A stretch of DNA of 42,768 nucleotides, from the NCBI RefSeq assembly GCF_016756745.1, contig NZ_JAESIH010000022.1:1-42768 (forward strand), given 5' to 3'. The first letter of the stretch is position 1, and every line of letters begins with the position of its first letter. This DNA is from Aminivibrio sp. GTDB lineage: Bacteria; Synergistota; Synergistia; Synergistales; Aminobacteriaceae. Of this stretch, positions 3,025-31,478 are shown in pieces. The position numbers were made by a program, and so were the translations under genes. Under the pieces are notes generated by a model. It did no database searches. It saw nothing but the letters and a program-made list of their open reading frames with translations, and was not told the DNA's origin.

Positions 3025-3214
3025 ATGTTTTCCCTCCTTAAAGTATTTGACGCCATTATCCGGAGGGAGCGTTACGGATGCAGCAAGGAAGTGTATCGGA
3101 GGTGTAAAAAGTTGGGGGATGGAAGCAGGGTGGCCGATCCGGGCGGGTGTCCCGTTCCGGGGGTGACAATATCACTGTCTCGTAACATTTTTCCGCGGTA
3201 CAATTGAAAACAAA

Positions 3215-3227
3215 ATCATCGTATGAT
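3215..3227. promoter_or_regulatory. Small palindrome upstream of the GntR gene
   Basis: ATCAT-CGT-ATGAT is a perfect 5-bp inverted repeat just upstream of the regulator's AAGGAGG ribosome binding site, in the divergent intergenic region. FadR-type GntR proteins often bind short palindromes at their own promoters, so an autoregulatory operator is possible. The assignment rests on position and symmetry only. Confidence 0.3.
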
Positions 3228-3262
3228 AGGATGAAACGACAAAAAGGAGGGGGGATACGCCC

Positions 3263-3985
3263 ATGCCGTTGCCCCTGAGGGCAAAGAAGCTCACGGAACT
3301 GCTTATTGACGAGATAAAGGTGCTCATCGAGGCGGATTCTCTTCAGCCGGGGGACAAAATTCCCACGGAGCAGGAGCTGATGAGGATCTTCAAGGTGAGC
3401 AGGACCTGCGTCCGGGAAGCCCTTTCGGTTCTCCGTCAGGAGGGAGTGGTGGAAATCATCCAAGGAAAGGGTACTTTCCTTAAAAAACACTATACCCCCT
3501 TTCCCGATATGGCCGACCCTTCCTCCAGCGCCCTGGGGCACTTCATGGAGGCGAGGAAAGTGCTGGAGAGCAGCCTGGCCCGCCTTGCCGCCGAAAGGGC
3601 CTCGGAAGAGGACCTGGAGCGGATGGAGTCTGCCCTGTCCGTTCTCGAAGGGGCGGACGCCGACCTCGACCCGGACCGGGTGGTCCAGTCCGACCTCGAT
3701 TTTCATTACAGTCTCGCGAAAGCTGCGGGAAATCCCGTGCTTCTTCACCTTCTCCAGGAGGTGGATTCTCATCTTCAGATAGGCCGTTCCACCACCATCA
3801 CCTTTCCCCAAGGGCGGAAGAAAGCTCTCGAGGGACACAAAAGAGTGCTCCAGGCTCTGCGGAGGCGGTCTCCCGACGATGCCGCCCTTCAGATTGCCCG
3901 GCATATCGACGAGATAGAGAAGGCCCAGAGGTTCATCATGGCCCTCCAGGACGGTCCGGCGAAAGAAGGAGGGACTGGAAAATGA
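3263..3985 (+). CDS. FadR-subfamily GntR transcriptional regulator
   Basis: A 240-residue regulator with an N-terminal winged helix-turn-helix (about residues 10-76; TEQELMRIFKVSRTCVREAL and the wing EIIQGKGTFL) and a C-terminal FCD ligand domain (about 90-225). The FCD metal-ligand pattern is present: SDLDFH, then EGHKRV, then IARHIDEI. Such proteins usually sense small carboxylates or acyl compounds and control transport and catabolic genes. It is encoded just upstream, on the same strand, of a TRAP/TAXI transporter and a NadX-like enzyme, its likely targets. The start has AAGGAGG 10 nt upstream. Confidence 0.9.
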   Translation: MPLPLRAKKLTELLIDEIKVLIEADSLQPGDKIPTEQELMRIFKVSRTCVREALSVLRQEGVVEIIQGKGTFLKKHYTPFPDMADPSSSALGHFMEARKVLESSLARLAAERASEEDLERMESALSVLEGADADLDPDRVVQSDLDFHYSLAKAAGNPVLLHLLQEVDSHLQIGRSTTITFPQGRKKALEGHKRVLQALRRRSPDDAALQIARHIDEIEKAQRFIMALQDGPAKEGGTGK

Positions 3986-4069
3986 TCTGAGAGGTTTTGG
4001 AGCAGACGGAGAAAAAATTGTCTCGTGCAGGGGAAGAAGGAAATGTTGCTGATCGGGGAGGCTTGAATT

Positions 4070-5941
4070 TTGGATTGTTTTCCTGAAAGAAAAATGAACC
4101 TTTTGATTACTGCCGTTTCAGCAGCCATGGGAATTTTTCACGTCTACACGGCGTTTTTCGGGGTGCTGACCGCCCTCTGGCAGCGGAGCATCCATCTTAC
4201 CTTCGGATTTCTCATCTGTTACCTGACCGTGGTCGGAGGAGCCTCCCTGAAGCGGGAAAAGATATTCCCGCTGATTGCTGCGGCGGCCTCCCTTTTTTGC
4301 CTGGGGCATTTCATTCTCAATTTCCAGGCCATGATCCTCCGGTTCGGAGAGCCCGACACTCCGGACCTTGTGGTGGGGACGGTGCTTATCGTACTCGTCC
4401 TGGATTTCGCCCGGCGTTCTGTGGGGAACGTCCTTCCCGGGATCGCCGTGGTGTTCCTTCTCTACGCCGTTGCCGGCCCCTATCTGCCGGGGATGCTCCG
4501 GCACAGGGGGTACGACCTGACCCGGATCGTCTACCAGATCTCCCTGAGCACCGAGGGCATCTTCGGCACGCCCCTCGGTGTGTCGGCGAACTACGTCTTT
4601 ATCTTCGTCCTCTTCGGGGCGTTCCTTGAGGTCACCGGGGCGGGGCGGTTCTACATCGACTTTGCGGTGAAATCCGTAGGCGGAAGCGCCGGGGGCCCGG
4701 CGAAGGCCGCCGTGGTGGCGAGCAGCCTCTTCGGTTCCGTTTCGGGCAGCGCCGTGGCCAACGTGGCGGGCACGGGAGCGGTGACCATCCCCCTCATGCG
4801 CTCCATCGGCTACAGGCCGGAATTCGCGGCGGCGGTGGAGGCGGTGGCGTCCACGGGAGGGCAGATCATGCCTCCCCTCATGGGCGCGGCGGCCTTCATC
4901 ATGGCGGAGATTCTGGCCATTCCCTACTACAAGGTGGCCCTGGGCGCCCTCATCCCCGCCCTGATTTTCTACGGCACGGTCTTCACCATGGTCCACTGCA
5001 GGGCGAAGATCCTCGGCCTCTCGGGGACGGCCCGGGATTCCCTTCCTCCCATGAAGGCCATTCTCCGGGACCAGGGCATCTTTTTCATTCCCCTCCTCGT
5101 GTTGATCTACTTTATGATCATCGCCCAGTACTCCGTCATGAAGGCGGCGGTCTACTCTCTTCTCGCCACGGTCCTGGTGGGTTTTTTCAAGAAGCGGATG
5201 GGCTGGCGGGACATCATCGCCGCTTTCGAGAGCGGCGCCAGGGTCTCCCTGGTGGTCATAGCCTCCACGGCATGCGCCGGGATCATCGTGGCGGTCATGA
5301 ACCTGACCGGGCTGGGCATGAAGTTTTCGAGCCTCGTTCTCGCTGTGGGGGGAAACAGCCTGATCCTCGTACTCATCATGATCATGCTCGCCAGCCTGCT
5401 GCTGGGCATGGGGCTCCCGACAACCCCCGCGTACCTCATCCTGGCGGTCCTCGGGGCGCCCACCCTGGTGAGGCTGGGAGTGGAGCCGCTGGCGGCCCAT
5501 CTCTTCGTCTTCTATTTCGGCTGCATGTCCATGATCACACCGCCGGTGGGGCTGGCCGTGTACGCTGCCTCCTGCATAGCGGAGGCGGATTTCTGGAAGA
5601 CGTCGAAGAACGCCCTTCTCCTGGCCCTTCCGGCCTTCCTGGTGCCCTACATGTTTGTGTTTCACCCGTCGCTGGTGGGTCTTGGAGATATCGTGTCCGT
5701 TCTCTCCGCGGCGGCGAGCGGGCTGCTCGGGGCCGTGATCCTCGGGGCAGGGCTGTCGGGCTGGTTTTTCCTGAAGGTTTCCCTTCCGGACCGGGCGATC
5801 CTCTGCACCGCAGGCATTCTGCTTATCCTGCCGGGGTGGCCGAGCAATATCGCGGGTATTCTTCTTGCTTTCGCAGTATGGGTATTCCGGAAGAAGCTGA
5901 AGAACCGACACTCGGAGCAGCGTCCTTTCGGAGAGCAGTGA
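4070..5941 (+). CDS. TRAP transporter fused permease (4TM/12TM, TAXI type)
   Basis: A 623-residue membrane protein that fuses the small (DctQ-like, about residues 1-170) and large (DctM-like, about 180-600) TRAP permease subunits. Family blocks visible: SVSGSAVANVAGTGAVTIPL, GGQIMPPLMGAAAFIMAEI, and MGLPTTPAYLIL with a nearby MITPPVGLAVY. It would drive sodium-coupled uptake with the binding protein encoded next. I chose TTG at 4070 because GGGGAGG ends 8 nt upstream; ATG at 4094 is the alternative but has a weak ribosome binding site. TAXI-linked permeases are usually fused like this. The substrate is unknown; the downstream aspartate-dehydrogenase-like gene hints at an amino acid or dicarboxylate. 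Confidence 0.92.
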   Translation: MDCFPERKMNLLITAVSAAMGIFHVYTAFFGVLTALWQRSIHLTFGFLICYLTVVGGASLKREKIFPLIAAAASLFCLGHFILNFQAMILRFGEPDTPDLVVGTVLIVLVLDFARRSVGNVLPGIAVVFLLYAVAGPYLPGMLRHRGYDLTRIVYQISLSTEGIFGTPLGVSANYVFIFVLFGAFLEVTGAGRFYIDFAVKSVGGSAGGPAKAAVVASSLFGSVSGSAVANVAGTGAVTIPLMRSIGYRPEFAAAVEAVASTGGQIMPPLMGAAAFIMAEILAIPYYKVALGALIPALIFYGTVFTMVHCRAKILGLSGTARDSLPPMKAILRDQGIFFIPLLVLIYFMIIAQYSVMKAAVYSLLATVLVGFFKKRMGWRDIIAAFESGARVSLVVIASTACAGIIVAVMNLTGLGMKFSSLVLAVGGNSLILVLIMIMLASLLLGMGLPTTPAYLILAVLGAPTLVRLGVEPLAAHLFVFYFGCMSMITPPVGLAVYAASCIAEADFWKTSKNALLLALPAFLVPYMFVFHPSLVGLGDIVSVLSAAASGLLGAVILGAGLSGWFFLKVSLPDRAILCTAGILLILPGWPSNIAGILLAFAVWVFRKKLKNRHSEQRPFGEQ

Positions 5942-5976
5942 AAGAGAAAGCACACCATTCAAAGGAGGAAGAGAAA

Positions 5977-6948
5977 ATGAAAGGAAAGGTATGGAAAGGA
6001 ATCACCCTTGCGGCGGCGCTCATGATGTGTTTCGGGGCGCCTCTGACGGCTTCGGCCCTTGAGCTGAAGCAGATTTCCATCGCGGGAGCCGGTACGGCGG
6101 GAACGTTTTACATCATGGCCGCGGGAATCGCCGATCTGTTCGGCAAACAGCTCGGCGTGAACTCCGTGGCCGAGGTGACGGCGGGTTCTGTGGAGAACGT
6201 CAAGCTCCTCGACAGCAACCGGGTGGAACTCGCCGTCATGCAGGTGGACGTCATGCAGAACGCCCTGGCGGGGAAGGCCCAGTTCAAGGCGCCGGTGGAC
6301 ATGGTTGCAATCGCTCCCCTGTACCCCAACGTGATCCAGATCGTCACGCTGAAGGATTCCCCCATCAACACCTTCGCGGACCTGAAGGGCAAGAGGATCT
6401 CCGTGGGCTCTCCCGGAAGCGGCATCCTCGCCACGAACCAGATCATCCTGGAGACCATGGGAATGACGCTGAACGACATCCAGCCCCAGTACCTCTCCTT
6501 TGCCGAGACCACCAACGCCTTCCGTGACGGTTCCATCGACGCGGCCATCGTGAACACCGCCGCTCCCGCTCCCTGGGTGGTGGACCTTGAAACGAGCCAC
6601 GAAGTGAAGTTCATCGAGCTTTCGAAAGAAGAGATTGAAAAGTTCACCGGGAAATTCGGCCATTTCGTCCCGGCGGAAATACCCAAAGAGGCCTACAAGT
6701 CCCTTGACAAGGATGTCACCACCTTCGCCGTGTGGATCACCCTGTCCGGCCGGGGGGACCTTCCCGAGCAGGATGTCTACGACATGACGAAAACCATTTT
6801 CGAGAACACCGATTTTCTGAAGAGCATCCATGCGGTGGGAAGCTACATCACCCTGGAGAACGTGTCGAAGATCGCCTCCCTGCCCTTCCACCCCGGCGCC
6901 GTGAAGTTCTATGCCGAAAAGGGAATCGACGTTTCGCCGAAGAAATAG
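5977..6948 (+). CDS. TAXI-family TRAP solute-binding protein
   Basis: A 323-residue periplasmic binding protein for the fused permease just upstream. It has a signal peptide (KGKVWKGITLAAALMMCFG...ASA, about residues 1-26), then the TAXI hallmark GTAGTFYIMAAGIADLF, TAGSVENVKLLDSNRVELA and the KGKRISVGSPGSG segment. The start ATG is preceded by AAAGGAGG. The reading frame is open far upstream across the permease gene, but the signal peptide and ribosome binding site fix the start here. The ligand is not readable from sequence; TAXI ligands known to me include glutamate and other carboxylates. Confidence 0.92.
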   Translation: MKGKVWKGITLAAALMMCFGAPLTASALELKQISIAGAGTAGTFYIMAAGIADLFGKQLGVNSVAEVTAGSVENVKLLDSNRVELAVMQVDVMQNALAGKAQFKAPVDMVAIAPLYPNVIQIVTLKDSPINTFADLKGKRISVGSPGSGILATNQIILETMGMTLNDIQPQYLSFAETTNAFRDGSIDAAIVNTAAPAPWVVDLETSHEVKFIELSKEEIEKFTGKFGHFVPAEIPKEAYKSLDKDVTTFAVWITLSGRGDLPEQDVYDMTKTIFENTDFLKSIHAVGSYITLENVSKIASLPFHPGAVKFYAEKGIDVSPKK

Positions 6949-6963
6949 AGAGGAGGAGGAGCG

Positions 6964-7788
6964 TTGAAAAAACTGCGCGTGGCCATCCTTGGCTGCGGAA
7001 CCATCGGACGGTTTGTCCTTGATCACCTCGCCGACGGGGTGGTGCCCGGGTGTGAGCCGGTGGCGGTCTGTCTCCGTTCTCCGGAATCCAGGGGAAGAGA
7101 GCACCTCGAGTCGAGAAAGATCCCCTGGGTCACCAGCCTCGAAGATCTTCTCACGTTTTCGCCCGACGTGGTGGTGGAAGCGTCCGCCCATGACGTCGTA
7201 GTGGCCATGGGGCCGGAAATCCTGGAGAGGGGAGTGGATTTCATCCCTCTGAGCCTCGGGGCCTTCGTGGAACCCGGTCTTATGGAGACCATGACGGCGG
7301 CGGCGGAAAAGGGCGGCAGCAGGCTCCACATCCCCTCGGGAGGCATCGGCGCCCTGGACGCTCTGCAGACCGCCCTGATCGGCGGTGTGGAGAAGGTGAC
7401 CATGACCACCAGGAAATACTCCACCACGTGGAAGGGCATTCCCGCCGTGGACGAGCTGGGGGTGGACCTGGAGAACCTGAAGGAGCCCCTGCTTCTTTTC
7501 GAGGGCCCCGCCAGGGAGTGCATGAAGAAGTACCCCCAGAGCATCAACATCGGCGCGGCCCTGAGCATCGCCGGGATCGGCTTCGACAGGACGATCATCA
7601 GAATCTACGCCGACCCGACGGTGGAGTACAACACCCACGAGATCCGCTGGGAAGGAGCCACGGGAAAAGTGACGGTCCTCTTCGAAAACACGCCGGTCCC
7701 CACGAACCCGAAGACGACATACCAGGCCTGTCTCAGCACCCTCTTCGTGCTGAAGAACATGACGGGGAACAGGATTATCGGCGCCTGA
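6964..7788 (+). CDS. nadX: Aspartate dehydrogenase-like NAD(P) oxidoreductase (NadX family)
   Basis: A 274-residue enzyme with an N-terminal Rossmann fold (VAILGCGTIGRFVL) and a C-terminal domain with the family pattern NIGAAL...GFDRTIIRIYADP...NTHEI...PTNPKTTYQACLS. L-aspartate dehydrogenases interconvert aspartate and iminosuccinate; homologues act in NAD biosynthesis or in amino acid catabolism. No nadA/nadC genes adjoin. Instead it follows a TRAP/TAXI transporter by 15 nt, so a catabolic role on an imported amino acid or related imine is more likely (inference). Start is TTG at 6964 with a very strong GAGGAGGAGG site; there is no better ATG. A terminator follows. Confidence 0.85.
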   Translation: MKKLRVAILGCGTIGRFVLDHLADGVVPGCEPVAVCLRSPESRGREHLESRKIPWVTSLEDLLTFSPDVVVEASAHDVVVAMGPEILERGVDFIPLSLGAFVEPGLMETMTAAAEKGGSRLHIPSGGIGALDALQTALIGGVEKVTMTTRKYSTTWKGIPAVDELGVDLENLKEPLLLFEGPARECMKKYPQSINIGAALSIAGIGFDRTIIRIYADPTVEYNTHEIRWEGATGKVTVLFENTPVPTNPKTTYQACLSTLFVLKNMTGNRIIGA

Positions 7789-7817
7789 TCCACGCTGAGA
7801 GCCGAGAGACGGCCGAA

Positions 7818-7862
7818 AAAGGGCGGGTCGGGGAGATGTCTTTCCGGGCCCGCCCTTTCTCT
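7818..7862 (+). terminator. Intrinsic terminator after nadX
   Basis: AAAGGGCGGG (7818-7827) pairs with CCCGCCCTTT (7849-7858), followed by TTTCTCTG. It lies 30 nt after the NadX-like stop codon and would close the GntR/TRAP/NadX transcription unit. Confidence 0.8.
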
Positions 7863-7864
7863 GT

Positions 7865-8100
7865 CTACCTGAACTGTTCGTCCAGCCGGTCGAGGGCAGC
7901 CCTGCCCACGGAGAAGAACATCTCCTCCGCCGCTGCCGTCCGCGCCCGGGCTGCGGAGGAGCTGGAAGTCCATCTCCGAATCGCTGAAAAGAGAAAGCCG
8001 CACCCTGCTCCTCGTCACTCCCCGTACCTCCGGTGTGCCGTCCGCCCCCGTCCCTGGGGCGAACAGAATCACCAGCGGGAGGACCGATCCTGCATAGGTC
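7865..8100 (-). pseudogene. Possible decayed coding remnant
   Basis: On the minus strand two reading frames look coding but do not join. One frame runs through 'VILFAPGTGADGTPE...LSLFSDSEMDFQLL' and then loses sense. A second frame carries 'ARTAAAEEMFFSVGRAALDRL' and ends in a stop at 7865. This looks like one short gene broken by a frameshift near 7945. I do not recognise the family. It could also be chance coding-like sequence in GC-rich DNA. The 329-base gap between nadX and nudC holds only this and the terminator. Confidence 0.3.
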
Positions 8101-10394: not shown

Positions 10395-10485
10395 CGCCGC
10401 GCTCAGAATGACATACCGTCATCTGCCGTTGTAAGCATGTCATATTCCTGTTCTGTTATCCTGAGGAGCGAAGCGAAGAATCCGA
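10395..10485. repeat. TGTCATTCTGAG-type repeat cluster overlapping the opgH2 3' end
   Basis: Two units of the interspersed repeat are visible: GCTCAGAATGACA at 10401-10413 and TCCTGAGGAGCGAAGCGAAGAATC near 10460-10483 (read on the plus strand). The second unit runs into the coding sequence of the downstream OpgH copy and supplies its last codons and stop. Confidence 0.65.
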
Positions 10486-12606
10486 CCCTCGCTTTTTCTC
10501 TTTCTTTTCGGGAGGAACCAGGCCCCATCGAGCGGCGTCCTTTTCGTCGCCGAGGCGCCACACCTTCCTGTGGAGTTCCCGCAGGTGGTGCGGGGCCCTG
10601 AGGAGGGCCGTCTTTTCCTTCCGGTTCAGGGCGTCAGGCCCCGAGGCCAGCGCCTTTTCCACGATCCTGTCCCGGGCCCGTTCACGGGAAGGAGCTCCCC
10701 GCCGGAATCGGAGCAGCAGGGATGTGTGGAGACTGTGGACCAGGGGGTCCACCACCGCCCGGAGAAAACCTTTTTTCCGGTCGAAAAAGAACGGGAAGTA
10801 GGGTTCCGGGCGCAGGAGATTCTCCTCCAGGACCTGCAGTTCGGGGGGCAGCTCCACCTCCTCGGGGATGAGGAAGAGCCCTGATCTCCGGAACAGCCGT
10901 CCCACGGCGGCCCGTCCTGTGACGACGGAGATGGGGACGGAGAGGACCAGGGAGAAGATGACGGGGGAGATCCACCAGAAGAAGGACGGAGTGATCCGGT
11001 AGACCACCGTGCCCCAGCCGATGCCGAGGAGGGTGCCCCACCAGTGGGCCCGGAGGGCTTCCCTCCAGGTGGTTCCCCGATCGTCCCGGGACTGGGTTCC
11101 CCACCCCACGCTTTTTCCCAGGAGGGTGGACACTACGAAGAGGCTGTGGAAGACCATCCTGATGGGGGTGAGAATTATGGACAAAACCACCTCGAGGAGG
11201 ATGCTCAGGAAAAGACGTAACTTCCCACCGTAGAGCCTGGCCCTGAAATCGGCGAGGAGAATGGGTAAAGCGCTGAGAAACTTCGGGAGGAAGAGGAGCA
11301 GGGTGGTGGAGCCCAGCAGCGAGATGGCCCAGTGGGGACGCCATACGGGAAGCTCGGGGAGGAATTTTCGCAGTATGGGCATGTACACCGGTTCGAAGAG
11401 GACTTCCGAAATGGCCTGGGCGGAGTTGACCGTCAGGAAGGACAGCCAGAGAAGGGCCGAGCCGTAGGAGAGGATTCCGTTGATGAACAGCGCCCGGTGA
11501 GCGGGGAAGAAGCCCCGGGTGAAGAGCAGGCGGGTGTGCTGGAGGTTGCCCTGGCACCACCGGCGGTCCCGCTTGAGCTCGTCGATGAGGGTGGGGGGCG
11601 TTTCCTCCCATGTCCCCTTGAGGTCGTAGGTGAGCCAGATTCCGTACCCTGACCGGCACATGAGGGCCGACTCCACGTAGTCGTGGCTGAGGATGTCCCC
11701 GCTCAGCGGACCTTTGCCGGGAAGGCGGGGAAGCTCGCAGTGCTTTATGAAGGGGTCCACCCTGATTAGGGCGTTGTGGCCGCAGTACTGGGCATCGCCT
11801 AGCTGCCAGAAATGGAGACCCGCAGCCAGCAGGGGGCCGTAGACGTGGTTGGCGAACTGCTGCACCCGGGCGATGAGCGTTTCCCGGTTCACCGCCTTGG
11901 GAGGCGTCTGGAGGATGCCGATGTCCGGCCGAGCCTCCATGATCTGCACCAGCCGCACCAGAGTTTCGCCGCTCATGATGCTGTCGGCGTCGAAGACGGC
12001 CATGTACCGGTAGCTTTTGCCCCACCGGCGGCAGAAGTCGGCCACGTTGCCGCTTTTCCGCTTGGTGTTGCTGGTCCGCTTCCGGTAGAAGACCCGTCCG
12101 AAGGCGTTTTCCTCCGAACAGAACCTGTACCAGGCTTCTTCCTCCTCCACCCAGACGTCGGGATCGGTGGTATCGCTGAGCAGGAAGAAGTCGAACCGGT
12201 CCAGGGAGCCCGTCGCCCGGACGGACGCGTAGGTCGTCCGCAATCCCGCGACGACCCGCTTTACATCTTCGTTGTAGATGGGGATGAGGATGGCCGTTCG
12301 TGCCGCTTTGTCGGCGATGGTGAAGTCGAGACCGTCGCAGGCCCGGGAGACCCGGTAGGAGTCCTTTTTCGTCAGCAGGATGACCAGCCCCGCGATGGAA
12401 GTCCAGAAGCCCACGGAAATCCAGGCAAACAGGGTGGTGAACACCGCCACGAGGAATGTGTCCAGCAGGATGCTTCCTCGGTCGGGCAGGAGCCGGGCCA
12501 TGGTGTTGCTGGAGATGATGGTCGGGATGAGGACGATCAGGAGGAGCAGCAGGCGCCGCCTGCTGCCGGTGCGCCTCCAGGCCGGAACGGGTCCGCCGTC
12601 AGCCAT
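10456..12606 (-). CDS. opgH: Glucan biosynthesis glucosyltransferase OpgH, second copy (membrane-catalytic part)
   Basis: A 716-residue inner-membrane family-2 glycosyltransferase that would polymerise glucose from UDP-glucose into the backbone of osmoregulated periplasmic glucan. Visible are an N-terminal TM pair (about 18-80), the catalytic domain with AILIPIYNEDVKRV, LLSDTTDPD, the DAD motif in VFDADSIMSGET, SHDYVESALM and ELKRDRRWCQGNLQH (QxxRW-type), and about six C-terminal TMs. It lacks the roughly 130-residue cytoplasmic N terminus of E. coli OpgH; that part is encoded by the overlapping upstream ORF (ATGGCTGA, 8-nt overlap, GGAGGG site 7 nt before the ATG). The C terminus (GSDSSLRSSG) is encoded by an interspersed repeat. 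By eye about 70-80% identical to the first copy across the catalytic core. Confidence 0.92.
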   Translation of the reverse strand: MADGGPVPAWRRTGSRRRLLLLLIVLIPTIISSNTMARLLPDRGSILLDTFLVAVFTTLFAWISVGFWTSIAGLVILLTKKDSYRVSRACDGLDFTIADKAARTAILIPIYNEDVKRVVAGLRTTYASVRATGSLDRFDFFLLSDTTDPDVWVEEEEAWYRFCSEENAFGRVFYRKRTSNTKRKSGNVADFCRRWGKSYRYMAVFDADSIMSGETLVRLVQIMEARPDIGILQTPPKAVNRETLIARVQQFANHVYGPLLAAGLHFWQLGDAQYCGHNALIRVDPFIKHCELPRLPGKGPLSGDILSHDYVESALMCRSGYGIWLTYDLKGTWEETPPTLIDELKRDRRWCQGNLQHTRLLFTRGFFPAHRALFINGILSYGSALLWLSFLTVNSAQAISEVLFEPVYMPILRKFLPELPVWRPHWAISLLGSTTLLLFLPKFLSALPILLADFRARLYGGKLRLFLSILLEVVLSIILTPIRMVFHSLFVVSTLLGKSVGWGTQSRDDRGTTWREALRAHWWGTLLGIGWGTVVYRITPSFFWWISPVIFSLVLSVPISVVTGRAAVGRLFRRSGLFLIPEEVELPPELQVLEENLLRPEPYFPFFFDRKKGFLRAVVDPLVHSLHTSLLLRFRRGAPSRERARDRIVEKALASGPDALNRKEKTALLRAPHHLRELHRKVWRLGDEKDAARWGLVPPEKKEKKRGSDSSLRSSG

Positions 12607-13135
12607 TGGTTTTCCCTCCGAAGAGTTCCCGGCTCCACCGCCGAAGAAAACGGACGAGGGACGTCCTCCAGGGCAGGCGGTCCATTTCCTCCGCCACCAT
12701 GACGGCCCGGTTCAGCGGAGGAAAGGAGGAGATGCGCCGTCCTCCCCGATCCATGATGTCGGGTGAAAATCCTTCTTCCCGGAGCAGCCGCTCAAGGGCG
12801 TCCATGGCTTCTTCAGGGGATGACGGGGCTTCCTCAAGGCTCCGCGCGGCGAGGGAGAGACCCCTGGCAGGTTGGATGCCGAGCCCCCGGATATAAAGAA
12901 GGACCCTGTCCCCGGCAGCCCACTGCCCGGGGGCGGGCTCTTCGGAACAGGGTGCGGTGCGGTCGCCCGGACAGGTCACGGCAGCCTCCGGGAAAAGGGG
13001 GATGCAGCGAGGGAGCGGAAATGAAAGGAGGGGCGTCGGGACGGAAGGCCCCTTCCGGGAAACGTCTTCTCTGGATACACCGGGAAAACCTCCTGGCGGT
13101 TCGGTCTTGTGTTTATGAAGCCTATGAGACATCAT
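12599..13135 (-). CDS. Free-standing OpgH N-terminal domain, second copy
   Basis: A 178-residue soluble protein. Its C-terminal half (GDRVLLYIRGLGI..., ISSFPPLNRAVMVAEEMDRLPW, SLVRFLRRWSRELFG) parallels the small ORF upstream of the first opgH copy and resembles the cytoplasmic segment just before TM1 of E. coli OpgH (remembered as ...[23 protein letters not shown]). I infer it is the OpgH N-terminal region encoded separately. The start is uncertain: ATG at 13135 has GGAAGG 9 nt upstream and overlaps the preceding opgH by 14 nt. Its first about 80 residues look unlike the paralogue and are low-complexity, so a later start is possible. It ends inside the start of the next opgH, implying translational coupling. 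Confidence 0.7.
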   Translation of the reverse strand: MMSHRLHKHKTEPPGGFPGVSREDVSRKGPSVPTPLLSFPLPRCIPLFPEAAVTCPGDRTAPCSEEPAPGQWAAGDRVLLYIRGLGIQPARGLSLAARSLEEAPSSPEEAMDALERLLREEGFSPDIMDRGGRRISSFPPLNRAVMVAEEMDRLPWRTSLVRFLRRWSRELFGGKTNG

Positions 13136-15290
13136 ACGGGCATTCCTTCCGTCCTGCAAGGAAGGGGGAATTCCTATCCCCGGCCGGCGGGAGCACGACC
13201 AGTCCCCAGAGGGCGGCCGCGTCCCGGTCTTCCAGTTCCCATACCCGGCGGTGGAGTTCCGCCAGGCGGCGGGGGTCCTTCAGAAGCTCTATCTTCTCCC
13301 GTTGGGTGAGACTGCCCGGGCCTTTCGCGATGGCTTTTTCCACCAGCCCTTCCATGGCGTTCTCCCGGGCGGGGGCTTTCTTTTTGTAGCGCAGCAGGAG
13401 AGATGTGTGGAGGGCGTGGACAAGAGGGTCCACCACCGCACGGAGAAATCCCTGTTTCCGGGAGAAGGGGAAGGGCGTATAGGGTTCGGGACGCCGGAGG
13501 TTTTCCTCGAGGTCGGCGAGTTCGGCGGGGAGTTCCACTTCCTCCGGGATCAGGAGCAGGCCGGAGTTCCGGAAAGCCCTCCCCAGGGACGCACGGCTCG
13601 TGAAGACCGAGAGGGGCGCCGAGAGAACCAGAGAGACGACGATGGGGGAAATCCACGGGAAGAAGGACGGGTTGGCCAGGTAGACCAGGCCGCCCCAGGC
13701 AGCGCCGAAGAGGGTTCCCCACCAGTGGGCGGAAAGTGCCTCGCTCCAGGATGTTCCCCGGTCGTCCCGGGACTGGCTGCCCCACCCCACGCTTTTTCCT
13801 AGCAGTGTGGCGGTGACGAAGAGACTGTGGAAGATCATCCGCACCGGGGCGAGAAGGGTGGAAAGCCCCACCTCGAGCAGGATGCCCGAAACAAGGTTTG
13901 TCCTGCCGCCGAAAGCCCGTGCCGATGGGTCCCTCAGGAGGATGAGGACCATGCTGAAGAGCTTGGGGAGGAAGAGGAGCACCGCCGTGGAGCCGAGTAG
14001 GGTGAGCGCCCAGTGGGGGTGCCACACGGGCCACTGGGGGAAGAGGGTCTTCGTCCCGGGAAAGTACACCGGCTCGAAGAAAACTTCAGCAACGGCCTGG
14101 GCGGAGCTCAGCAGCAGGAAGGCAAGCCACAGGAGGGCGGACCCGTAGGAGAGAATGCCGTTAAGAAACAGGGCCCTGTGGGTGGGAAAGAACCCCCTGG
14201 TGAAGAGAAGGCGCATGTGCTGGAGGTTCCCCTGGCACCAGCGCCGGTCGCGCTTCAGTTCGTCCAGCAGGGTGGGCGGGGTTTCCTCCCAGCTTCCCCC
14301 GAGGTCGTAGGCCAGCCAGACGCCGTAGCCCGCCCGCCGCATGAGGGCGGCCTCCACGAAGTCATGGCTGAGGATGTCCCCCGCCAGGGGGCCTTTTCCC
14401 GGAAGGCGGGGTACCTGGCAGTACTTCATGAAGGGTTCCGTCCTGATGATGGCGTTGTGTCCCCAGTACTGGGCGTCTCCGAGCTGCCAGAAATGGAGGC
14501 CTGCGGCGAACATCGGGCCGTAGACATGGTTTGCGAACTGCTGGGCCCTGGCGATGAGGGTCTCCCGGTTCACTCCGGCGGGAGGCGTCTGGAGGATGCC
14601 GATGTCCGGCCGGGCCTCCATGCACTGCACCATGCGGACCAGAGTTGTGCCGGCCATGATGCTGTCGGCGTCGAAGACGATCATGTAGCGGTAGTTTTTC
14701 CCCCACCGGCGACAGAAGTCGGCCACGTTGCCGCTCTTTCGCCGTGAGTTGCTGGAACGCCTCCGGTAGAAAACCCGCCCTGAGGCGTTCTCCTCCCGGC
14801 AGAATCGCCGCCAGGCTTCTTCCTCCTCAACCCAGATGTCCGGGTCGGTGGTGTCGCTCAGCAGAAAGACGTCGAACAGGTCTGAGGAGCCGGTTTTCCC
14901 CAGGGAGGTGAACACGGTGCGGAGCCCCGCCATCACACGTTTTACATCCTCGTTGTAGATCGGTATGAGGACGGCGGTCCGAGCTGTTCTGTCGGCGATG
15001 GACCAGTCCATATGCTCGCAGGCCCGGGAAACGGAGAAACGGTTGTTTTTCCCCAGGAGGAGAAAGAAGCCCATGGAGGCCGTCCAGAATCCCACGGAAA
15101 TCCAGGCGAAAAGGACGGCGAACACCGCCACGAGGAGGAACTCCATGGCCGTGCCGCCCCGGAAGGGCAGCAGCGCGGCCATGGTGCGGGCGGCTGCGAT
15201 CGTGGGAAGGATGACCAGGACGATGAGCAGAATGCGCCGCCAACTGGCGGCGCGGTTCCACGAAGGGTTGGGCATCCCGGTGTCATGCAT
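13122..15290 (-). CDS. opgH: Glucan biosynthesis glucosyltransferase OpgH, first copy (membrane-catalytic part)
   Basis: A 722-residue membrane glycosyltransferase with the same design as the second copy: TM pair (about 20-75), GT2 domain with VLIPIYNEDVKRV, LLSDTTDPDIW, VFDADSIMAGT, AGLHFWQLGDAQYWGHNA, SHDFVEAALMRRAGYGVW and ELKRDRRWCQGNLQH, then C-terminal TMs. All catalytic motifs known for OpgH appear intact. I chose ATG at 15290 (MHDTGMP), which overlaps the stop of the small upstream ORF as ATGCATGA and has GGGAGA upstream; the frame stays open to 15350. E. coli OpgH is a single chain of about 847 residues, so this gene plus the preceding ORF together make one conventional OpgH. Confidence 0.93.
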   Translation of the reverse strand: MHDTGMPNPSWNRAASWRRILLIVLVILPTIAAARTMAALLPFRGGTAMEFLLVAVFAVLFAWISVGFWTASMGFFLLLGKNNRFSVSRACEHMDWSIADRTARTAVLIPIYNEDVKRVMAGLRTVFTSLGKTGSSDLFDVFLLSDTTDPDIWVEEEEAWRRFCREENASGRVFYRRRSSNSRRKSGNVADFCRRWGKNYRYMIVFDADSIMAGTTLVRMVQCMEARPDIGILQTPPAGVNRETLIARAQQFANHVYGPMFAAGLHFWQLGDAQYWGHNAIIRTEPFMKYCQVPRLPGKGPLAGDILSHDFVEAALMRRAGYGVWLAYDLGGSWEETPPTLLDELKRDRRWCQGNLQHMRLLFTRGFFPTHRALFLNGILSYGSALLWLAFLLLSSAQAVAEVFFEPVYFPGTKTLFPQWPVWHPHWALTLLGSTAVLLFLPKLFSMVLILLRDPSARAFGGRTNLVSGILLEVGLSTLLAPVRMIFHSLFVTATLLGKSVGWGSQSRDDRGTSWSEALSAHWWGTLFGAAWGGLVYLANPSFFPWISPIVVSLVLSAPLSVFTSRASLGRAFRNSGLLLIPEEVELPAELADLEENLRRPEPYTPFPFSRKQGFLRAVVDPLVHALHTSLLLRYKKKAPARENAMEGLVEKAIAKGPGSLTQREKIELLKDPRRLAELHRRVWELEDRDAAALWGLVVLPPAGDRNSPFLAGRKECPYDVS

Positions 15291-15675
15291 GGCCGTTTGT
15301 CTCCCAGGGGCCGAAAAGATTCCGCCTCCACCGGCGGAGGAAGCGGCCAAGGGCTGATTTCCATGGAACCCGGTCGAGGGGCTCCGCCACCATGACTCCC
15401 CTGTTCAGGGAAGGCATCGAGGAGATGTGCTTCCCTTCCTCGTCGAGGATTCCCCTGTCGAGGCCGTTTTCCGCCAGGAGTTCCCGGAGTTTTTTCACGG
15501 CCTCCGAGGTGGACGCGGGGCCGGTTGCCTTGAGGCTCTCCACGGCCAGGTCGAGCCCTCGAAAGGGAGGCAGGTCAAGGGCACGGACGTAGAGGAGAAC
15601 CCGGTCCCTGGAGTAGCGCCACTCGTCGTGGGATCCGGCGGGCCTATTCATTCCGGTCTCAGGGATGGAGGTCAT
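15283..15675 (-). CDS. Free-standing OpgH N-terminal domain, first copy
   Basis: A 130-residue soluble protein between opgG and opgH. Its body (RYSRDRVLLYVRALDLPPFRG...ESLKATG...VKKLRELLAENG) is a helical domain, and its end (ISSMPSLNRGVMVAEPLDRV followed by LGRFLRRWRRNLFG) matches the region that precedes TM1 in single-chain OpgH. ATG at 15675 overlaps the opgG stop by 17 nt and has CGGAG about 10 nt upstream; ATG at 15651, 8 nt past that stop, is the alternative. Overlaps at both ends make it part of one coupled operon. In E. coli this N-terminal region is reported to contact FtsZ; whether the free form does is unknown. Confidence 0.8.
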   Translation of the reverse strand: MTSIPETGMNRPAGSHDEWRYSRDRVLLYVRALDLPPFRGLDLAVESLKATGPASTSEAVKKLRELLAENGLDRGILDEEGKHISSMPSLNRGVMVAEPLDRVPWKSALGRFLRRWRRNLFGPWETNGHA

Positions 15676-17329
15676 AGGTCCACGTCTCCGTAAGGGGATC
15701 GGGGAGGTTCTCTCCCTTTTTGAGAAGGGCGGTGATCCGGATGTAGGGCCTTGCCGCCTGGGTCGGGAAAATGGTCTTGAGTTTGCCCTTCGGGTCGACG
15801 GCAATGTGCAGGACGAGGCGCCATCCCCCGGTGACCTCGTTTTTCAGCAACTGCTTCTCGAGAAGACGGCCCCCTTCACCCACGGTGACCACGCTCGTCA
15901 GTCCCGAGTCCCCGGGAAGGTCGGCCAGCTGCCCGCCCTCGAAGTCCAGGACGAAGCGCACCGTCCCTTCCTGGTTCCCGGCGGCCATTCTGCTCGCCGC
16001 GGCCCTGCCGAGGGGGTGGACGGTTTCCGAGGGGTGCATCCATCGCATCCGGTACGCGAAGGACATCTCGCCGGGGTATTTCCGCACGTCATTTATCGGC
16101 AGACCGTCTGCGCCCGTCTCTTCAATTTTATCGGGAACCCAGTACGCCACCATGTTGTCGTGAATCTCCAGTTCCGAGGGAATTTCCACCAGCTCCACCC
16201 TTCCCGGTCCCCATGAACCCCGGGGTTCGATCCAGAGGGAGGGGCGCTTCTCGTATCGTGCCTCCAGGTCCTGGTAGTGGTCGAAGGTCCCGTCGCGCTG
16301 CATCAGGCCGAAGCCGGCAGGATTGACCTGGGGGTAGAGGATAACGGCAAGGCGGGAGGGGTTTGCCAGGGGACGCCAGATCCACTCGCCGGACTCGGTG
16401 TGCATCAGGAGACCGTCGGAATCGTGGACTTCGGGGCGATAATCCCCCTGCCGGCCGTTTTCCGTCTCCCCGTAAAGGAACATACTCGTCAGGGGGGCGA
16501 TGCCGAGCTTCTGCAGGTCCTTCCGCAGAAAAAGGGTGCTCTCGGCGTCCATGACGGTCTCCTTCCCTGGAATGACGGTGAAGGCGTAGGCGCCGGTGAG
16601 GCCGGGACTGTCCAGGAGTGCGTAGATCCTGATGAGGGTGCTCTCCGGGGCGGGCTTCTCGATCCAGAACTCGCGGAAGTAGGGGAACTCCTCCCCCGAC
16701 TGGAGGGCCGTGTCGACGGCGAGCCCCCGGGCGGAAAGACCGTACTGCACGTCCCGGGCCACGGCACGGAAGTAGCTGGCCCCCAGGAAGACCACCGCCT
16801 CGTCCTTGTAATTCCCGGAATTGAGGTTGCAGTGAATCCGGAAACCGGCGAAGTCGAGGGGCGTTGATGCCACTTTCGAAGCGAATTCGTTGTCGCCGTA
16901 GTCGAAGGCCGAAGAGGAGAAGGGGAGCTTCTCCGACCGTCCGTTTTCAATGATGTTGATCGTGACCAACCTGTTGTAGAAAAGCCCGGGGTGGAAGAAC
17001 TGCACCTCGAAAGGCAGGCCTTCCGCCCTCCACAGGGATTCGGAGGGACGGAAGCGGATTTTCCGCCACTGGTCGTAGCTGATGTTCAGCAGAAAATCGG
17101 GAACCTGCCCCTCCGGGTTCTCGAAGGGCCGGGATGCCAGTTCTTCGGCCTTTTGCTTTACATCGTCGAAGGAGAAGTGGAGGACTGCCGCAGGGCCGGA
17201 CTGAACGGCGTCCCCCGGGGGCGTCTCCGATGCCCCGGGGGACGCGGGAAGCAAGCAAAACGCCGCCGCGAGGAACGCGGCGACGGCTATCTGACGGTAT
17301 GAGCGATGGCGCCGAATGCAGGGGAACAC
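15659..17329 (-). CDS. opgG: Periplasmic glucan biosynthesis protein OpgG
   Basis: A 556-residue periplasmic protein of the OpgG/OpgD family, needed with OpgH to form and branch osmoregulated glucans. The start is GTG at 17329: AAGGAGGG lies 6 nt upstream and the product then begins with a typical signal peptide (RRHRSYRQIAVAAFLAAAFC...). ATG at 17377 in the same frame has no ribosome binding site. Family features: FSFDDVKQKAEELASRPFE, DFLLNISYDQWRKIRFRP, FHPGLFYNRLVTINI, REFWIEKPAPES and the C-terminal Ig-like domain ending TWTYDLHP. A plausible promoter, TTGCGC-16-TATCAT, lies in the 105 nt between the GGDEF-EAL gene and this start. First gene of the opg operon. Confidence 0.92.
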   Translation of the reverse strand: MFPCIRRHRSYRQIAVAAFLAAAFCLLPASPGASETPPGDAVQSGPAAVLHFSFDDVKQKAEELASRPFENPEGQVPDFLLNISYDQWRKIRFRPSESLWRAEGLPFEVQFFHPGLFYNRLVTINIIENGRSEKLPFSSSAFDYGDNEFASKVASTPLDFAGFRIHCNLNSGNYKDEAVVFLGASYFRAVARDVQYGLSARGLAVDTALQSGEEFPYFREFWIEKPAPESTLIRIYALLDSPGLTGAYAFTVIPGKETVMDAESTLFLRKDLQKLGIAPLTSMFLYGETENGRQGDYRPEVHDSDGLLMHTESGEWIWRPLANPSRLAVILYPQVNPAGFGLMQRDGTFDHYQDLEARYEKRPSLWIEPRGSWGPGRVELVEIPSELEIHDNMVAYWVPDKIEETGADGLPINDVRKYPGEMSFAYRMRWMHPSETVHPLGRAAASRMAAGNQEGTVRFVLDFEGGQLADLPGDSGLTSVVTVGEGGRLLEKQLLKNEVTGGWRLVLHIAVDPKGKLKTIFPTQAARPYIRITALLKKGENLPDPLTETWTYDLHP

Positions 17330-17434
17330 GAAGGACCCTCCTTGGCCGGATTTTCCGGACCGGTTGTGAAATAACATACATCATGATAAGCCTTTTTTGC
17401 CGGAGCGCAATGAGGGAGGGAAATTTCCCTGTTT

Positions 17435-29319: not shown

Positions 29320-30264
29320 TCAGATCTTCGGAACGTGCAGGTCCGGTGCTCCCTGGGGCGAAACCCGCACCCCCGGCTCGTTGAGGGTGACGTGCCCGAT
29401 TGCCCATTCAGCCCACTTGACCTTTTTCTCCATGAGGCGCATGTGCTCCTCGTCGGAGTTGAAGGGGTTGTAGTAGCCCGCGGTCGGCGCCGGCTCGAAC
29501 TTGAAGTAGCAGGGTGCGTAGACCTTCGCGACCTCCGGGGCGTCGTACATGCGGTTCGATCCGCCGTAGGTGTCGAAGGTCCAGATGTAGAAGTCGATGG
29601 GAATGTCGGTCACGGACCGGATGGCGACCATCTGGGGCAGGGTGAGGTCCGCCACGGGGTTGAAGGAACTTGCGCCGAGCTGCTGGGCCAGAAGAGCCCC
29701 GGCGGGGGAGGAAACTCCGGCCCAGACGGAGAGCTTGATCACGATATCCTTCGGGAAGTTCCCCTGCTCCTGCATTTTGCCCACGAGGGCCAGAACGCCT
29801 CGGTCGACGAGCATGAAACCCCGGAAACCTATTTCGTACATCCTCAGCATATCGGCGATCACCTTGCGGATTTCGTCCGATCCGCGATGGTTCAGTCCCC
29901 CGCAGCGCTGGCCGTCCGGAGTGACGAACTGCCGCCCGATGTCCCACGCGTTCCTCGGCCCGGGGATGGCGATGACTTCCATCTTTTCCTCGGCGGCCAT
30001 CTGGGCGAAGTCCTTCAGTTCGGCGTCGTCGTAGAGGGTGCCTCCCTGGCAGAAAGAGACCAGCCGGTGAATGGGCACGTTCCGCTTTCTCCGCTCCCGG
30101 ATCAGGGCCTCGAGGACCTTCGGCCCCTCCACGCCCGACATTTCGATGCGGTAGTGGCATCCGTCCGGGAAGCTCTTTCCGCTCGCGGGACGGTCGTAGA
30201 GATCCCGTCCGGGAATTCCCGCCTGTTCCATCATTTTTGATACCGCATCCATCGTTACTGCCAT
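29320..30264 (-). CDS. U32-peptidase-like TIM-barrel protein
   Basis: A 314-residue cytoplasmic protein. Blocks such as PIHRLVSFCQGGTLYDDAEL, KLSVWAGVSSPAGALLAQQL, GASSFNPVADLTLPQMVAI and FYIWTFDTYGGSNRMYDAPEV fit the barrel of proteins annotated as U32-like; true U32 family members act as collagenase-like proteases or tRNA/ubiquinone hydroxylation proteins. Its actual activity is unknown. ATG at 30264 (AGGAGG 7 nt upstream) is preferred over the ATG at 30270 that overlaps the IclR stop. It is in one operon with the IclR regulator and stands divergent from the TRAP genes, so it may process the transported substrate (inference). Confidence 0.7.
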   Translation of the reverse strand: MAVTMDAVSKMMEQAGIPGRDLYDRPASGKSFPDGCHYRIEMSGVEGPKVLEALIRERRKRNVPIHRLVSFCQGGTLYDDAELKDFAQMAAEEKMEVIAIPGPRNAWDIGRQFVTPDGQRCGGLNHRGSDEIRKVIADMLRMYEIGFRGFMLVDRGVLALVGKMQEQGNFPKDIVIKLSVWAGVSSPAGALLAQQLGASSFNPVADLTLPQMVAIRSVTDIPIDFYIWTFDTYGGSNRMYDAPEVAKVYAPCYFKFEPAPTAGYYNPFNSDEEHMRLMEKKVKWAEWAIGHVTLNEPGVRVSPQGAPDLHVPKI

Positions 30265-30266
30265 GT

Positions 30267-31112
30267 TCATTCCTCCTGTCGTTTTCTCTCCGGGACCGGT
30301 TGTCCGCCCGGATGGTCGTGTTCCCGGTTCCGTCCGCTGTATCCCAGTTCCCCGCTGATGCTTTCCGCTGCGTCCAGAAGGAGGGGGACGATGGTACTTT
30401 CGGCTTTCTCCATGTCGGGATGCCGGAAGGATGGAAAGGAAACGCTGATGCCCGCGGTGACCTTCCCCGAGGCATGGAAGACCGGGGCCGCAAGACAGGA
30501 AAGTCCCGGGTGGGATTCCTCCATGTCCCGGGCAAAGCGGTCCGTCCGGATCGTTTCGAGTTCCTCCATCAGCATATTCAGCGATTTCACCGTCCGCTCC
30601 GTGTACGGCACGAAGGACGTGCCGGAGAAGAGCTTTTTCACGGTTTCCGCCGGCAGAAAGGCAAGGATCGCCTTCCCGAGGGCCGAACAGTAGGCGGGCA
30701 TCCTCCGGCCCACCGGAAGATTCACCTGGATCGTCTCGTCGCACTGGATCCTTTCCAGATACACGATGTCGGTCCCGTCAAGACAGCCGAGATTCACGGC
30801 TTCGCCCACCTTTTCGGACAGGGAGCGCAGCGCCGGCCGGGCCCGCTCCCTGATCTGCTGCATATCCGGAGCGGCTCCCCCGAGAAGGGAGAACTTCGGC
30901 GTATTCGAGTACTTGCTGTTCAGGGGGTTCTGCCGCACATAGCCCATTTCCCGCAGGGTCGCGAGAATCCGATAGGCTGTGCTCTTGTCGATGCCGAGGC
31001 GGCCGTCGATCTCGGTGACTCCGAGTTCTCCCTCTTCGGCCAGCATCTCGGCAATCCGGAACGCCCTGATGACGGACTGGAGCAACTGCCGCGGATTTTC
31101 TTTCCTTCTCAC
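30267..31112 (-). CDS. IclR-family transcriptional regulator
   Basis: A 281-residue regulator. An N-terminal winged helix (SVIRAFRIAEMLAEEGELGV, IDKSTAYRILATLREMGYV) is followed by the IclR effector domain (NLGCLDGTDIVYLERIQ, VGRRMPAYCSALGKAILAFL, DMEESHPGLSCLAAPVF, SISVSFPSF). The start is GTG at 31112 with GGGAGGG 8 nt upstream; the frame is open further through the broken MFS gene but without a site. It lies upstream of the U32-like gene and opposite the dctPQM genes, its likely targets. A 21-bp palindrome at 31479-31499 is a candidate operator. Confidence 0.9.
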   Translation of the reverse strand: MRRKENPRQLLQSVIRAFRIAEMLAEEGELGVTEIDGRLGIDKSTAYRILATLREMGYVRQNPLNSKYSNTPKFSLLGGAAPDMQQIRERARPALRSLSEKVGEAVNLGCLDGTDIVYLERIQCDETIQVNLPVGRRMPAYCSALGKAILAFLPAETVKKLFSGTSFVPYTERTVKSLNMLMEELETIRTDRFARDMEESHPGLSCLAAPVFHASGKVTAGISVSFPSFRHPDMEKAESTIVPLLLDAAESISGELGYSGRNREHDHPGGQPVPERKRQEE

Positions 31113-31189
31113 GATGGAGACCCTCCCAATTTCTTCCCCGTCCGGCCATACGGAAGAAAAGAGACGGCCGGCGGCGCGATCGCCGCCCC

Positions 31190-31468
31190 CAGGGCCGGAC
31201 TCATGAAGCCCCGCGAAAAGATGTCTGTGGCGAGGGTGGCGTCCACGGGACGGGGTTGATTCCTGTCCTGTCGGCAGGCATGCCGCTCGCGATGACCGCG
31301 AGGACATACCCCCGGCTGGAAAACTGCGGGAATGAAATCCGTGTCCGGGGCAGCCGGGCCGAACTCTCCCGGTATCAGCGATGTTACGGCCGAAAAACCG
31401 TACCAGGGCATATACCCCAAAAAGATTGACACTATCGTGACGACAAGCAACCGATCTTCCGATTTCAT
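31190..31468 (-). pseudogene. Frameshifted N-terminal fragment of an MFS transporter
   Basis: From ATG at 31468 the product begins like a major-facilitator carrier (KSEDRLLVVTIVSIFLGYMP then WYGFSAVTSLIPGEFG). The frame breaks at a run of five C (31309-31313, G on the coding strand); dropping one base restores FQPGYVLAVIASGMPADRTG, the usual TM2/loop motif. A second shift near 31255 returns to PRPVDATLATDIFSRGFM. Only about 90 of some 400 residues remain before the IclR gene. It once likely headed the IclR/U32 operon. Confidence 0.65.
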
Positions 31469-31478
31469 TCCGACGGTC

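What the first reader, a model, noticed from the sequence alone, without database searches (positions are those of the whole stretch)
3263..7862. TAXI TRAP transporter paired with a NadX-like enzyme under a GntR regulator
The NadX-like gene is 15 nt after the binding protein and far from any NAD biosynthesis genes. A transport-linked aspartate dehydrogenase suggests catabolism of an imported amino acid through an imine (iminosuccinate-type) intermediate, giving NAD(P)H and ammonia; the substrate may not be plain aspartate.
Basis: partly seen in the sequence, partly recalled or inferred. Interest (0 to 1): 0.5.

Follow-up and report, generated by a model that had tools for sequence, protein, structure and literature searches.

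The report
Uptake operon with aspartate-dehydrogenase-like enzyme
A four-gene bacterial operon pairs a carboxylic-acid uptake system with an aspartate-dehydrogenase-like enzyme that does not appear to serve NAD synthesis; its binding protein differs at residues that hold glutamate in a studied relative, so the imported compound may be one not yet assigned to this transporter family.

Summary
gntR (3263-3985), fused TRAP permease (4070-5941), TAXI binding protein (5977-6948) and a nadX-like gene (6964-7788) lie on one strand, 15 nt between the last two. NAD synthesis is very unlikely: nadA has no match in any of the 9 genomes found with this nadX clade. In 8 of these 9, including three Bacillota, TAXI lies directly upstream of nadX. 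The ninth (G130) keeps gntR and nadX but has a DctP-type TRAP and three hydrolase-family genes.

The strongest VcGluP determinant, Gln93, is kept. (2) The 13-mer WCATCGTATGATA stands 34-41 nt before gntR in the 6 gntR loci found, and nowhere else in this genome even with one mismatch. (3) Arg-Ser at the nucleotide-fold beta2 end in 7 of 7 clade enzymes suggests NADP(H).

Most likely: import of a dicarboxylate-like compound and NADP-linked conversion through an imine. Ligand and direction are not shown. A beta-hydroxyaspartate pathway was tested and not supported.

The parts
3215..3228 (.). Conserved block ATCATCGTATGATA upstream of gntR (3215-3227 a perfect palindrome here), candidate GntR operator
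   Evidence: WCATCGTATGATA without mismatch before gntR in the 6 gntR loci found; one match with 0-1 mismatch in G000. Overlaps a promoter-like site at 3204-3232, so promoter conservation is not excluded
3263..3985 (+). gntR: FCD-type GntR-family regulator
   Evidence: Pfam PF00392 and PF07729 above cut-off
4070..5941 (+). Fused TRAP permease (QM) of TAXI type; TTG start at 4070 or ATG at 4094
   Evidence: TIGR02123 635.6 bits, PF06808 291.5 bits; starts
5977..6948 (+). TAXI-type solute-binding protein; F44, S71, Q89, N118, V192, N193 at the VcGluP ligand positions
   Evidence: TIGR02122; nearest solved relatives are TAXI proteins, several with glutamate; mapping by my count on the printed alignment
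6964..7788 (+). nadX-like gene: aspartate-dehydrogenase-family enzyme, 274 aa, TTG start
   Evidence: PF01958, NF009828 above cut-off; 2dc1 best solved relative by sequence and fold; only match in the genome
7818..7858 (+). Hairpin after nadX, possible terminator; tail only loosely T-rich
   Evidence: MFE -37.5 kcal/mol for 7800-7880, z -2.60, 1 of 200 shuffles as good; not listed by the terminator scan

Best explanation
The locus is a self-contained uptake-and-conversion operon under its own GntR regulator. The TAXI protein captures a small dicarboxylate-like compound, perhaps not L-glutamate, and the fused TRAP permease imports it. The NadX-family enzyme then interconverts it with the matching oxo acid plus ammonia through an imine, using NADP(H). 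I take the oxidative, catabolic direction as the more likely: it would give an oxo acid, ammonia and NADPH that feed central metabolism without further dedicated enzymes. Shown: gene order, families, recurrence of the unit, no nadA match, altered TAXI pocket, conserved block before gntR. Inferred: operator function, cofactor, substrate class, direction.
For: Operon layout and families. nadX is the only match in the genome. nadA has no match in 9 of 9 clade genomes (G000, G030, G044, G121; G000, G062, G130, G149-G151). TAXI directly upstream of nadX in 8 of 9 of them. In 149 genomes of the phylum the clade TAXI is in 5 and the clade nadX in 6, overlapping in 5; the next TAXI is 43% identical. 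In G130, with another TRAP, gntR (66.5%) and nadX (68%) are kept together. F44/N118 in 7 of 7 linked TAXIs against Y/E in 7 of 8 others compared; Y45 and E125 contact the glutamate amino group in VcGluP (PMC11574862). The conserved block has no second copy in G000. R38-S39 in 7 of 7 clade members.
Against: In VcGluP only Y45A and Q93A severely cut affinity; the Glu125 change did not, F44 keeps the aromatic ring, and Gln93 is kept, so glutamate binding is not excluded. If the amino contacts do matter, the ligand may have no free amino group. Characterised aspartate dehydrogenases aminate faster than they deaminate in vitro (DelAspDH 32.8 against 5.1 U/mg, PMC5554190). G130 separates nadX from the TAXI transporter. 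No enzyme or ligand data were found for any member. With 0-1 mismatch the block is no commoner than its reversed control in 5 of 9 genomes, and with 2 mismatches a copy in a 42.8 kb sequence is unremarkable (25 of 100 shuffles).
Confidence: 0.55

Rival explanations
1. Same operon, reductive direction: a keto or imine dicarboxylate (or its precursor) is imported and NadX aminates or reduces it with NADPH to an amino acid for biosynthesis.
For: Two of the three side chains that contact the amino group in VcGluP are replaced. A Proteus TAXI system takes 2-oxoglutarate and 2-hydroxyglutarate (passage in PMC12344293). R38-S39 suggests NADP(H). Two characterised enzymes aminate faster than they deaminate. 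In two Bacillota nadX is followed by DapA-family and homoserine-dehydrogenase-family genes; in Lutispora both reach a cut-off (dapA 214.9 against 206.15; NF004976 221 against 205).
Against: Import of an oxo acid only to aminate it would be an unusual use of a dedicated regulated transporter (judgement); the Gln93 equivalent, which contacts the amino group, is kept in all 7 linked TAXIs compared.
Confidence: 0.25
2. A beta-hydroxyaspartate-type pathway in which NadX replaces the iminosuccinate reductase BhcD.
For: In two Bacillota a class V aminotransferase gene near the unit has BhcA as its best NCBIfam match (244-246 bits, cut-off 650); in G069 a distant nadX homologue lies near a BhcC-like gene (173.8 bits, cut-off 690) and a Rid-family gene.
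Against: BhcA and BhcC models reach their cut-off in 0 of 12 genomes. The PLP dehydratase beside the unit in G062 scores best as threonine ammonia-lyase, 259.3 against 550 for BhcB, and is 77-79% identical in all 5 genus genomes and in G130, on contigs other than the unit's. Genomes were not searched with the BhcB or BhcD models.
Confidence: 0.05
3. NadX serves de novo NAD synthesis, supplying iminosuccinate to quinolinate synthase.
For: Family name and homology to Thermotoga TM1643.
Against: No nadA match in G000, in the other 4 genus genomes or in any of 10 genomes with a nadX-family gene, 6 of them of this clade, while 12 of 14 control genomes rang. Completeness of the four genomes reached through public records is not given.
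Confidence: 0.02
4. NadX is a housekeeping or repair activity that merely shares the operon with an unrelated transporter.
For: One genome pairs nadX with a different TRAP type.
Against: The TAXI-nadX adjacency survives at 53-64% identity across two phyla; nadX and gntR stay together even where the transporter differs.
Confidence: 0.08

Closest known systems
Aspartate dehydrogenase / NadX family (EC 1.4.1.21; TM1643, A. fulgidus 2dc1)
   Same: Same two-domain family; 2dc1, 1h2h and 1j5p are the top three by sequence and by fold; the His of the N-x-H motif is conserved (its catalytic role is recalled)
   Different: Below the equivalog cut-offs TIGR03855 and NF009830; no nadA match; Arg-Ser at the beta2 end where two distant Synergistota homologues have Asp; sits in a transporter operon
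TAXI-TRAP glutamate transporters (VcGluPQM, T. thermophilus TtGluBP)
   Same: Fused permease plus TAXI protein; predicted fold matches 8s4j and 1us4, TM-score 0.86 by target length; Q93 and S75 equivalents present
   Different: Y45 to F, E125 to N, Y200 to V, M201 to N
TAXI-TRAP of Proteus mirabilis for 2-oxoglutarate / 2-hydroxyglutarate (passage in PMC12344293, citing Roden 2023)
   Same: A TAXI system whose reported ligands are not amino acids
   Different: Its sequence was not fetched, so the pocket was not compared
Aspartate dehydrogenase genes beside transporters on plasmids (bacterial and haloarchaeal)
   Same: nadX-family gene within two annotated genes of a transporter gene in 9 of 12 regions read
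   Different: 32-39% identical; ABC, DctP-type TRAP, TTT, DMT or other transporters; none annotated as TAXI in the 12 regions
Beta-hydroxyaspartate cycle (BhcABCD)
   Same: Would use an imine dicarboxylate reductase
   Different: BhcA and BhcC models reach cut-off in 0 of 12 genomes

Membership tests
Aspartate dehydrogenase family (Asp_DH_C) | PF01958 C-terminal domain and Rossmann NAD-binding domain | tested here: met
   PF01958 101.3 bits (cut-off 27), PF03447 59.9 (24); fold match 2dc1 (model pLDDT only 68)
Aspartate dehydrogenase family (Asp_DH_C) | Equivalog score for NAD-pathway NadX (TIGR03855) | tested here: not met
   177.2 bits against 206.55
Aspartate dehydrogenase family (Asp_DH_C) | Activity on aspartate / oxaloacetate + ammonia | not testable with these tools
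   Needs enzyme assay
De novo NAD synthesis via NadX-NadA | nadA in the same genome | tested here: not met
   0 of 9 clade genomes; control 12 of 14
TAXI-type TRAP transporter | TAXI binding protein with adjacent fused QM permease | tested here: met
   TIGR02122 and TIGR02123 above cut-off, adjacent genes
Glutamate-specific TAXI (VcGluP-like) | Tyr45 and Gln93 equivalents (the two strong determinants) and Glu125 | tested here: not met
   F44, Q89, N118: Gln kept, Tyr and Glu not (roles from PMC11574862)
FCD-type GntR regulator | GntR HTH plus FCD domain | tested here: met
   PF00392 66.3 bits, PF07729 101 bits
FCD-type GntR regulator | Binding to the conserved block upstream of its gene | not testable with these tools
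   Conservation only
Beta-hydroxyaspartate cycle | BhcA and BhcC over family cut-off | tested here: not met
   0 of 12 genomes for each
Beta-hydroxyaspartate cycle | Linked BhcB-type dehydratase | tested here: not met
   The one linked dehydratase (G062) scores 259.3 against 550 for BhcB and is a shared gene located on other contigs in the genus

The most novel reading that the evidence does not exclude
The permease-TAXI-nadX unit is a cross-phylum module with its own substrate: a TAXI clade with a Phe/Gln/Asn pocket that carries a compound not yet assigned to any TAXI transporter (a dicarboxylate lacking a free alpha-amino group, or a modified aspartate), coupled to an NADP-dependent branch of the aspartate-dehydrogenase family with matching altered specificity. 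In G130 the same regulator and enzyme serve a larger precursor that is first opened by creatininase-, nitrilase- and phosphotriesterase-family hydrolases.
Probability: 0.35. Interest if true: 0.55.

Novelty: new variant of a known kind. Interest (0 to 1): 0.4.

Why it matters
Only a handful of TAXI substrates are known or postulated (PMC12344293, passages read). This clade ties a pocket change to one enzyme, so ligand and enzyme substrate can be tested against each other. It also shows that an 'aspartate dehydrogenase, NAD biosynthesis' label on such genes is misleading in genomes without nadA.

Tried and rejected
NAD biosynthesis: rejected, no nadA match. The nadB profile matches in G000 (4, best 288 bits against 452.75) are all below the cut-off; the same search rings in 13 of 14 control genomes, over the cut-off in 5.

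Beta-hydroxyaspartate pathway: raised by the PLP dehydratase beside the unit in G062, the BhcA-like aminotransferase in Bacillota and the BhcC-like gene near a distant nadX in G069. Not supported: the dehydratase is shared by the whole genus on other contigs, and the BhcA and BhcC models stay below cut-off in 12 of 12 genomes. A BhcC-like gene exists elsewhere in G000 (C7, 172 bits against 690), beside an FCD-type GntR gene and a RidA-like reading frame (by eye).

G144 as a counter-example: this genus member lacks nadX and TAXI, but its gntR (74%) and the first 80 residues of the permease run into a contig end, so it is uninformative, not a loss. It is not among the 9 clade genomes.

Rows left aside: of 12 of 149 genomes with a nadX match, 6 are the clade, 3 hold distant homologues (G087, G069, G141), and 3 (G013, G021, G082) have only weak partial matches, which I did not use. 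The fragmentary G151 TAXI was not compared.

Other phyla: one scan of genome contigs gave 7 loci. Two draws of 391 Bacillota genomes, largely the same genomes, gave 3 with a match each: the centre genome, G151 and a 33-34% match in G243. The plasmid search found 122 records; I read 12 regions, taken from the 30 listed before seeing their neighbours. All 12 have a transporter gene within 6 kb and 9 of 12 within two annotated genes, but no background rate was measured and these gene tables are incomplete. The NadX model is weak in its C-terminal half and was used only for fold matching.

Literature: 'aspartate dehydrogenase' with 'TRAP transporter' gave 0 papers. The listings showed nothing, by title and start of abstract, on a transporter-linked aspartate dehydrogenase. 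The library lacks most subscription journals, so this is not proof of absence from print.

They confirmed families first named by eye. I corrected the palindrome claim (perfect only in G000 and G130), the hairpin end, and the weight of Glu125, and lowered the novel-case probability from 0.40 to 0.35 for the last reason.
Full report
WHAT IS THERE. The window is contig 22 of a 2.94 Mb genome (G000); the closest nadX in named records is in a Synergistaceae MAG (96%), so I call its phylum Synergistota. Four genes run on the + strand: gntR 3263-3985, fused TRAP permease 4070-5941, TAXI binding protein 5977-6948, nadX-like 6964-7788. Gaps are 84, 35 and 15 nt, and TAXI and nadX have purine-rich ribosome-binding-like sequences just upstream. 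Family assignments are above curated cut-offs: GntR+FCD, TRAP_fused, TRAP_TAXI, and Asp_DH_C / NF009828. nadX scores below the equivalog cut-off for NAD-pathway NadX (177.2 against 206.55). A hairpin at 7818-7858 follows nadX (z -2.60); its tail is only loosely T-rich and the consensus scan did not list it.

NOT NAD SYNTHESIS. nadX has one match in the genome. nadA has no match in G000 or the other four genus genomes; 1 of the 20 genomes searched has it. None of 10 genomes with a nadX-family gene (6 of this clade, 4 with distant homologues) has a nadA match; four of the ten were reached through public records and their completeness is not given. Together, 0 of 9 clade genomes. The same search rang in 12 of 14 control genomes.

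THE UNIT RECURS. In the genus, G030, G044 and G121 hold the same four genes in order. G144 has gntR and the start of the permease at a contig end. In G062 (same family, another genus) permease, TAXI and nadX lie together; no relative of this gntR was found in the 19 kb around them. In [Clostridium] (Schnuerera) ultunense and Lutispora saccharofermentans permease, TAXI and nadX are followed by DapA-family and homoserine-dehydrogenase-family genes and preceded by a class V aminotransferase gene and an oppositely oriented LysR gene; the two last are in reverse order in the two genomes. In G151 a TAXI fragment is directly upstream of the nadX start on one contig, and the rest of nadX is on another. 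Identities to the window for G062 and the two Bacillota fall in parallel: TAXI 59-64%, permease 55-59%, nadX 53-56%. So 8 of 9 genomes found with this nadX clade have TAXI directly upstream. Among 149 genomes of the phylum, clade TAXI is in 5 and clade nadX in 6, with 5 shared; the next TAXI is 43% identical. A hypergeometric value of 1e-8 ignores relatedness (four of the five are one genus) and is not a probability.

THE INFORMATIVE EXCEPTION. G130 keeps gntR (66.5%) and nadX (68%) but has a DctP-type TRAP (DctP, DctQ, DctM by Pfam) and genes of the creatininase, carbon-nitrogen hydrolase and phosphotriesterase families between them; a 0.95 kb stretch among these holds no reading frame over 67 codons. 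Regulator and enzyme are the stable pair there. I infer that the inducer is the NadX substrate or product and that G130 imports a derivative that must first be hydrolysed.

A CANDIDATE OPERATOR. Upstream of gntR the five sequences first aligned differ widely except for a block around TCATCGTATGATA. WCATCGTATGATA occurs without mismatch exactly once in each of G000, G030, G044, G121, G130 and G144, each time 34-41 nt before gntR (for G144 measured to the fourth codon), and not without mismatch in G062, G149 and G150. G144 is independent support of a kind: its gntR was found through the motif. I did not search genomes for other copies of gntR. In G000 there is no second copy even with one mismatch. 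The block is a perfect ATCAT-CGT-ATGAT palindrome only in G000 and G130; in the others the arms are shorter. It overlaps a promoter-like site (3204-3232), so promoter conservation is an alternative. With one mismatch allowed, counts equal or fall below the reversed-pattern control in 5 of 9 genomes (G000, G044, G144, G130, G150), so the argument rests on the exact, positioned copies. If it is the operator, the regulon looks local and the NadX product should enter general metabolism directly (inference).

THE TAXI POCKET. In VcGluP the glutamate amino group is contacted by Y45, Q93, E125 and the M201 main chain; of six residues considered, only Y45A and Q93A severely cut affinity, 213- and 990-fold (PMC11574862, section 22 and the first of two parts of the Discussion read). 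By my count on the printed 8s4j alignment, the window protein has F44, Q89, N118 and N193 at these places, and S71 for S75. All 7 nadX-linked TAXIs compared have F, Q, N at the three side-chain positions. Of 8 other Synergistota TAXIs compared, 7 have Y, Q, E and one is divergent at all three. The clade is thus set apart, but shared ancestry alone could do that, Gln is kept, Phe keeps the ring, and Glu125 was not a strong determinant. The predicted structure (pLDDT 87.6) has TAXI proteins as its nearest solved relatives: 9ibp (VCA0144) first, then glutamate-bound 1us4, 8u79 and 8s4j. Reported TAXI ligands also include 2-oxoglutarate and 2-hydroxyglutarate in Proteus and phthalate in Azoarcus (passages of PMC12344293). 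The pocket leans against glutamate and leaves open whether the ligand has a free amino group.

THE ENZYME. The nearest solved proteins are A. fulgidus and T. maritima aspartate dehydrogenases by sequence and by fold. The N-x-H and NPKT motifs are conserved (their catalytic role is recalled). At the end of the second strand of the nucleotide fold two distant Synergistota homologues have Asp and a Burkholderiales one has a gap, while 7 of 7 clade members have Arg-Ser; by the general Rossmann rule (recalled) this suggests NADP(H). Characterised enzymes are reversible and two of them aminate faster than they deaminate (PMC5554190, first of three parts read), so direction cannot be read from the family.

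HOW COMMON IS IT. Distant nadX homologues on plasmids also sit with transporters: 9 of 12 regions read, of 122 records, have a transporter gene within two annotated genes of nadX, none annotated as TAXI. A transport-linked aspartate dehydrogenase is thus a wider pattern. What is particular here is the TAXI clade, its pocket and the local regulator.

MECHANISM. Best supported: import of a dicarboxylate-like compound and NADP-linked, imine-mediated conversion, more likely oxidative. The weakest steps are ligand and direction. The reductive reading is a serious rival. The beta-hydroxyaspartate reading was tested and dropped.

VERDICT. A real, conserved, probably regulated module; a new variant of known parts; moderate interest because it predicts a TAXI ligand that may be new and gives paired tests for it.

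Noticed in passing
L029 10955-11836, L030 10911-11792, L049 4886-5839, L052 4859-5812: A DapA-family gene lies directly beside nadX in two Bacillota (same strand) and, by annotation, in two Rhodobacterales plasmids (divergent), a recurring partnership between distant lineages.
   Followed up: partly
L022 5063-14963 (G087): A distant nadX (33%) in a cluster with genes above cut-off for cysteate racemase CuyB, pyruvate carboxylase subunit B domain and GntG-type aldolase, plus below-cut-off matches to aspartate aminotransferase and a dicarboxylate symporter: perhaps another non-NAD use of this family.
   Followed up: partly
L023 1439-8081 (G069) and L025 12364-13875 (G141): Distant nadX homologues near Rid-family genes (L023: 102.5 bits, just below the 106.25 cut-off; L025: Pfam above cut-off); in L023 also a BhcC-like gene.
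   Followed up: partly
window 10456-15350: Two similar large glycosyltransferase genes in tandem, next to an MdoG (periplasmic glucan) gene at 15659-17377.
   Followed up: no
window 29320-38355: IclR-type regulator, a 331-aa reading frame without Pfam match, and a DctP/DctM TRAP system, followed by adenine deaminase and a purine permease-family gene.
   Followed up: no
L017 1066-4042, L019 209-3187: In two other genus members a tripartite tricarboxylate transporter (TctB, TctA, TctC by Pfam) lies directly upstream of gntR; in the window this place holds alkaline-phosphatase and YibE/F-family genes. G062 has a TctA gene downstream of its unit.
   Followed up: partly
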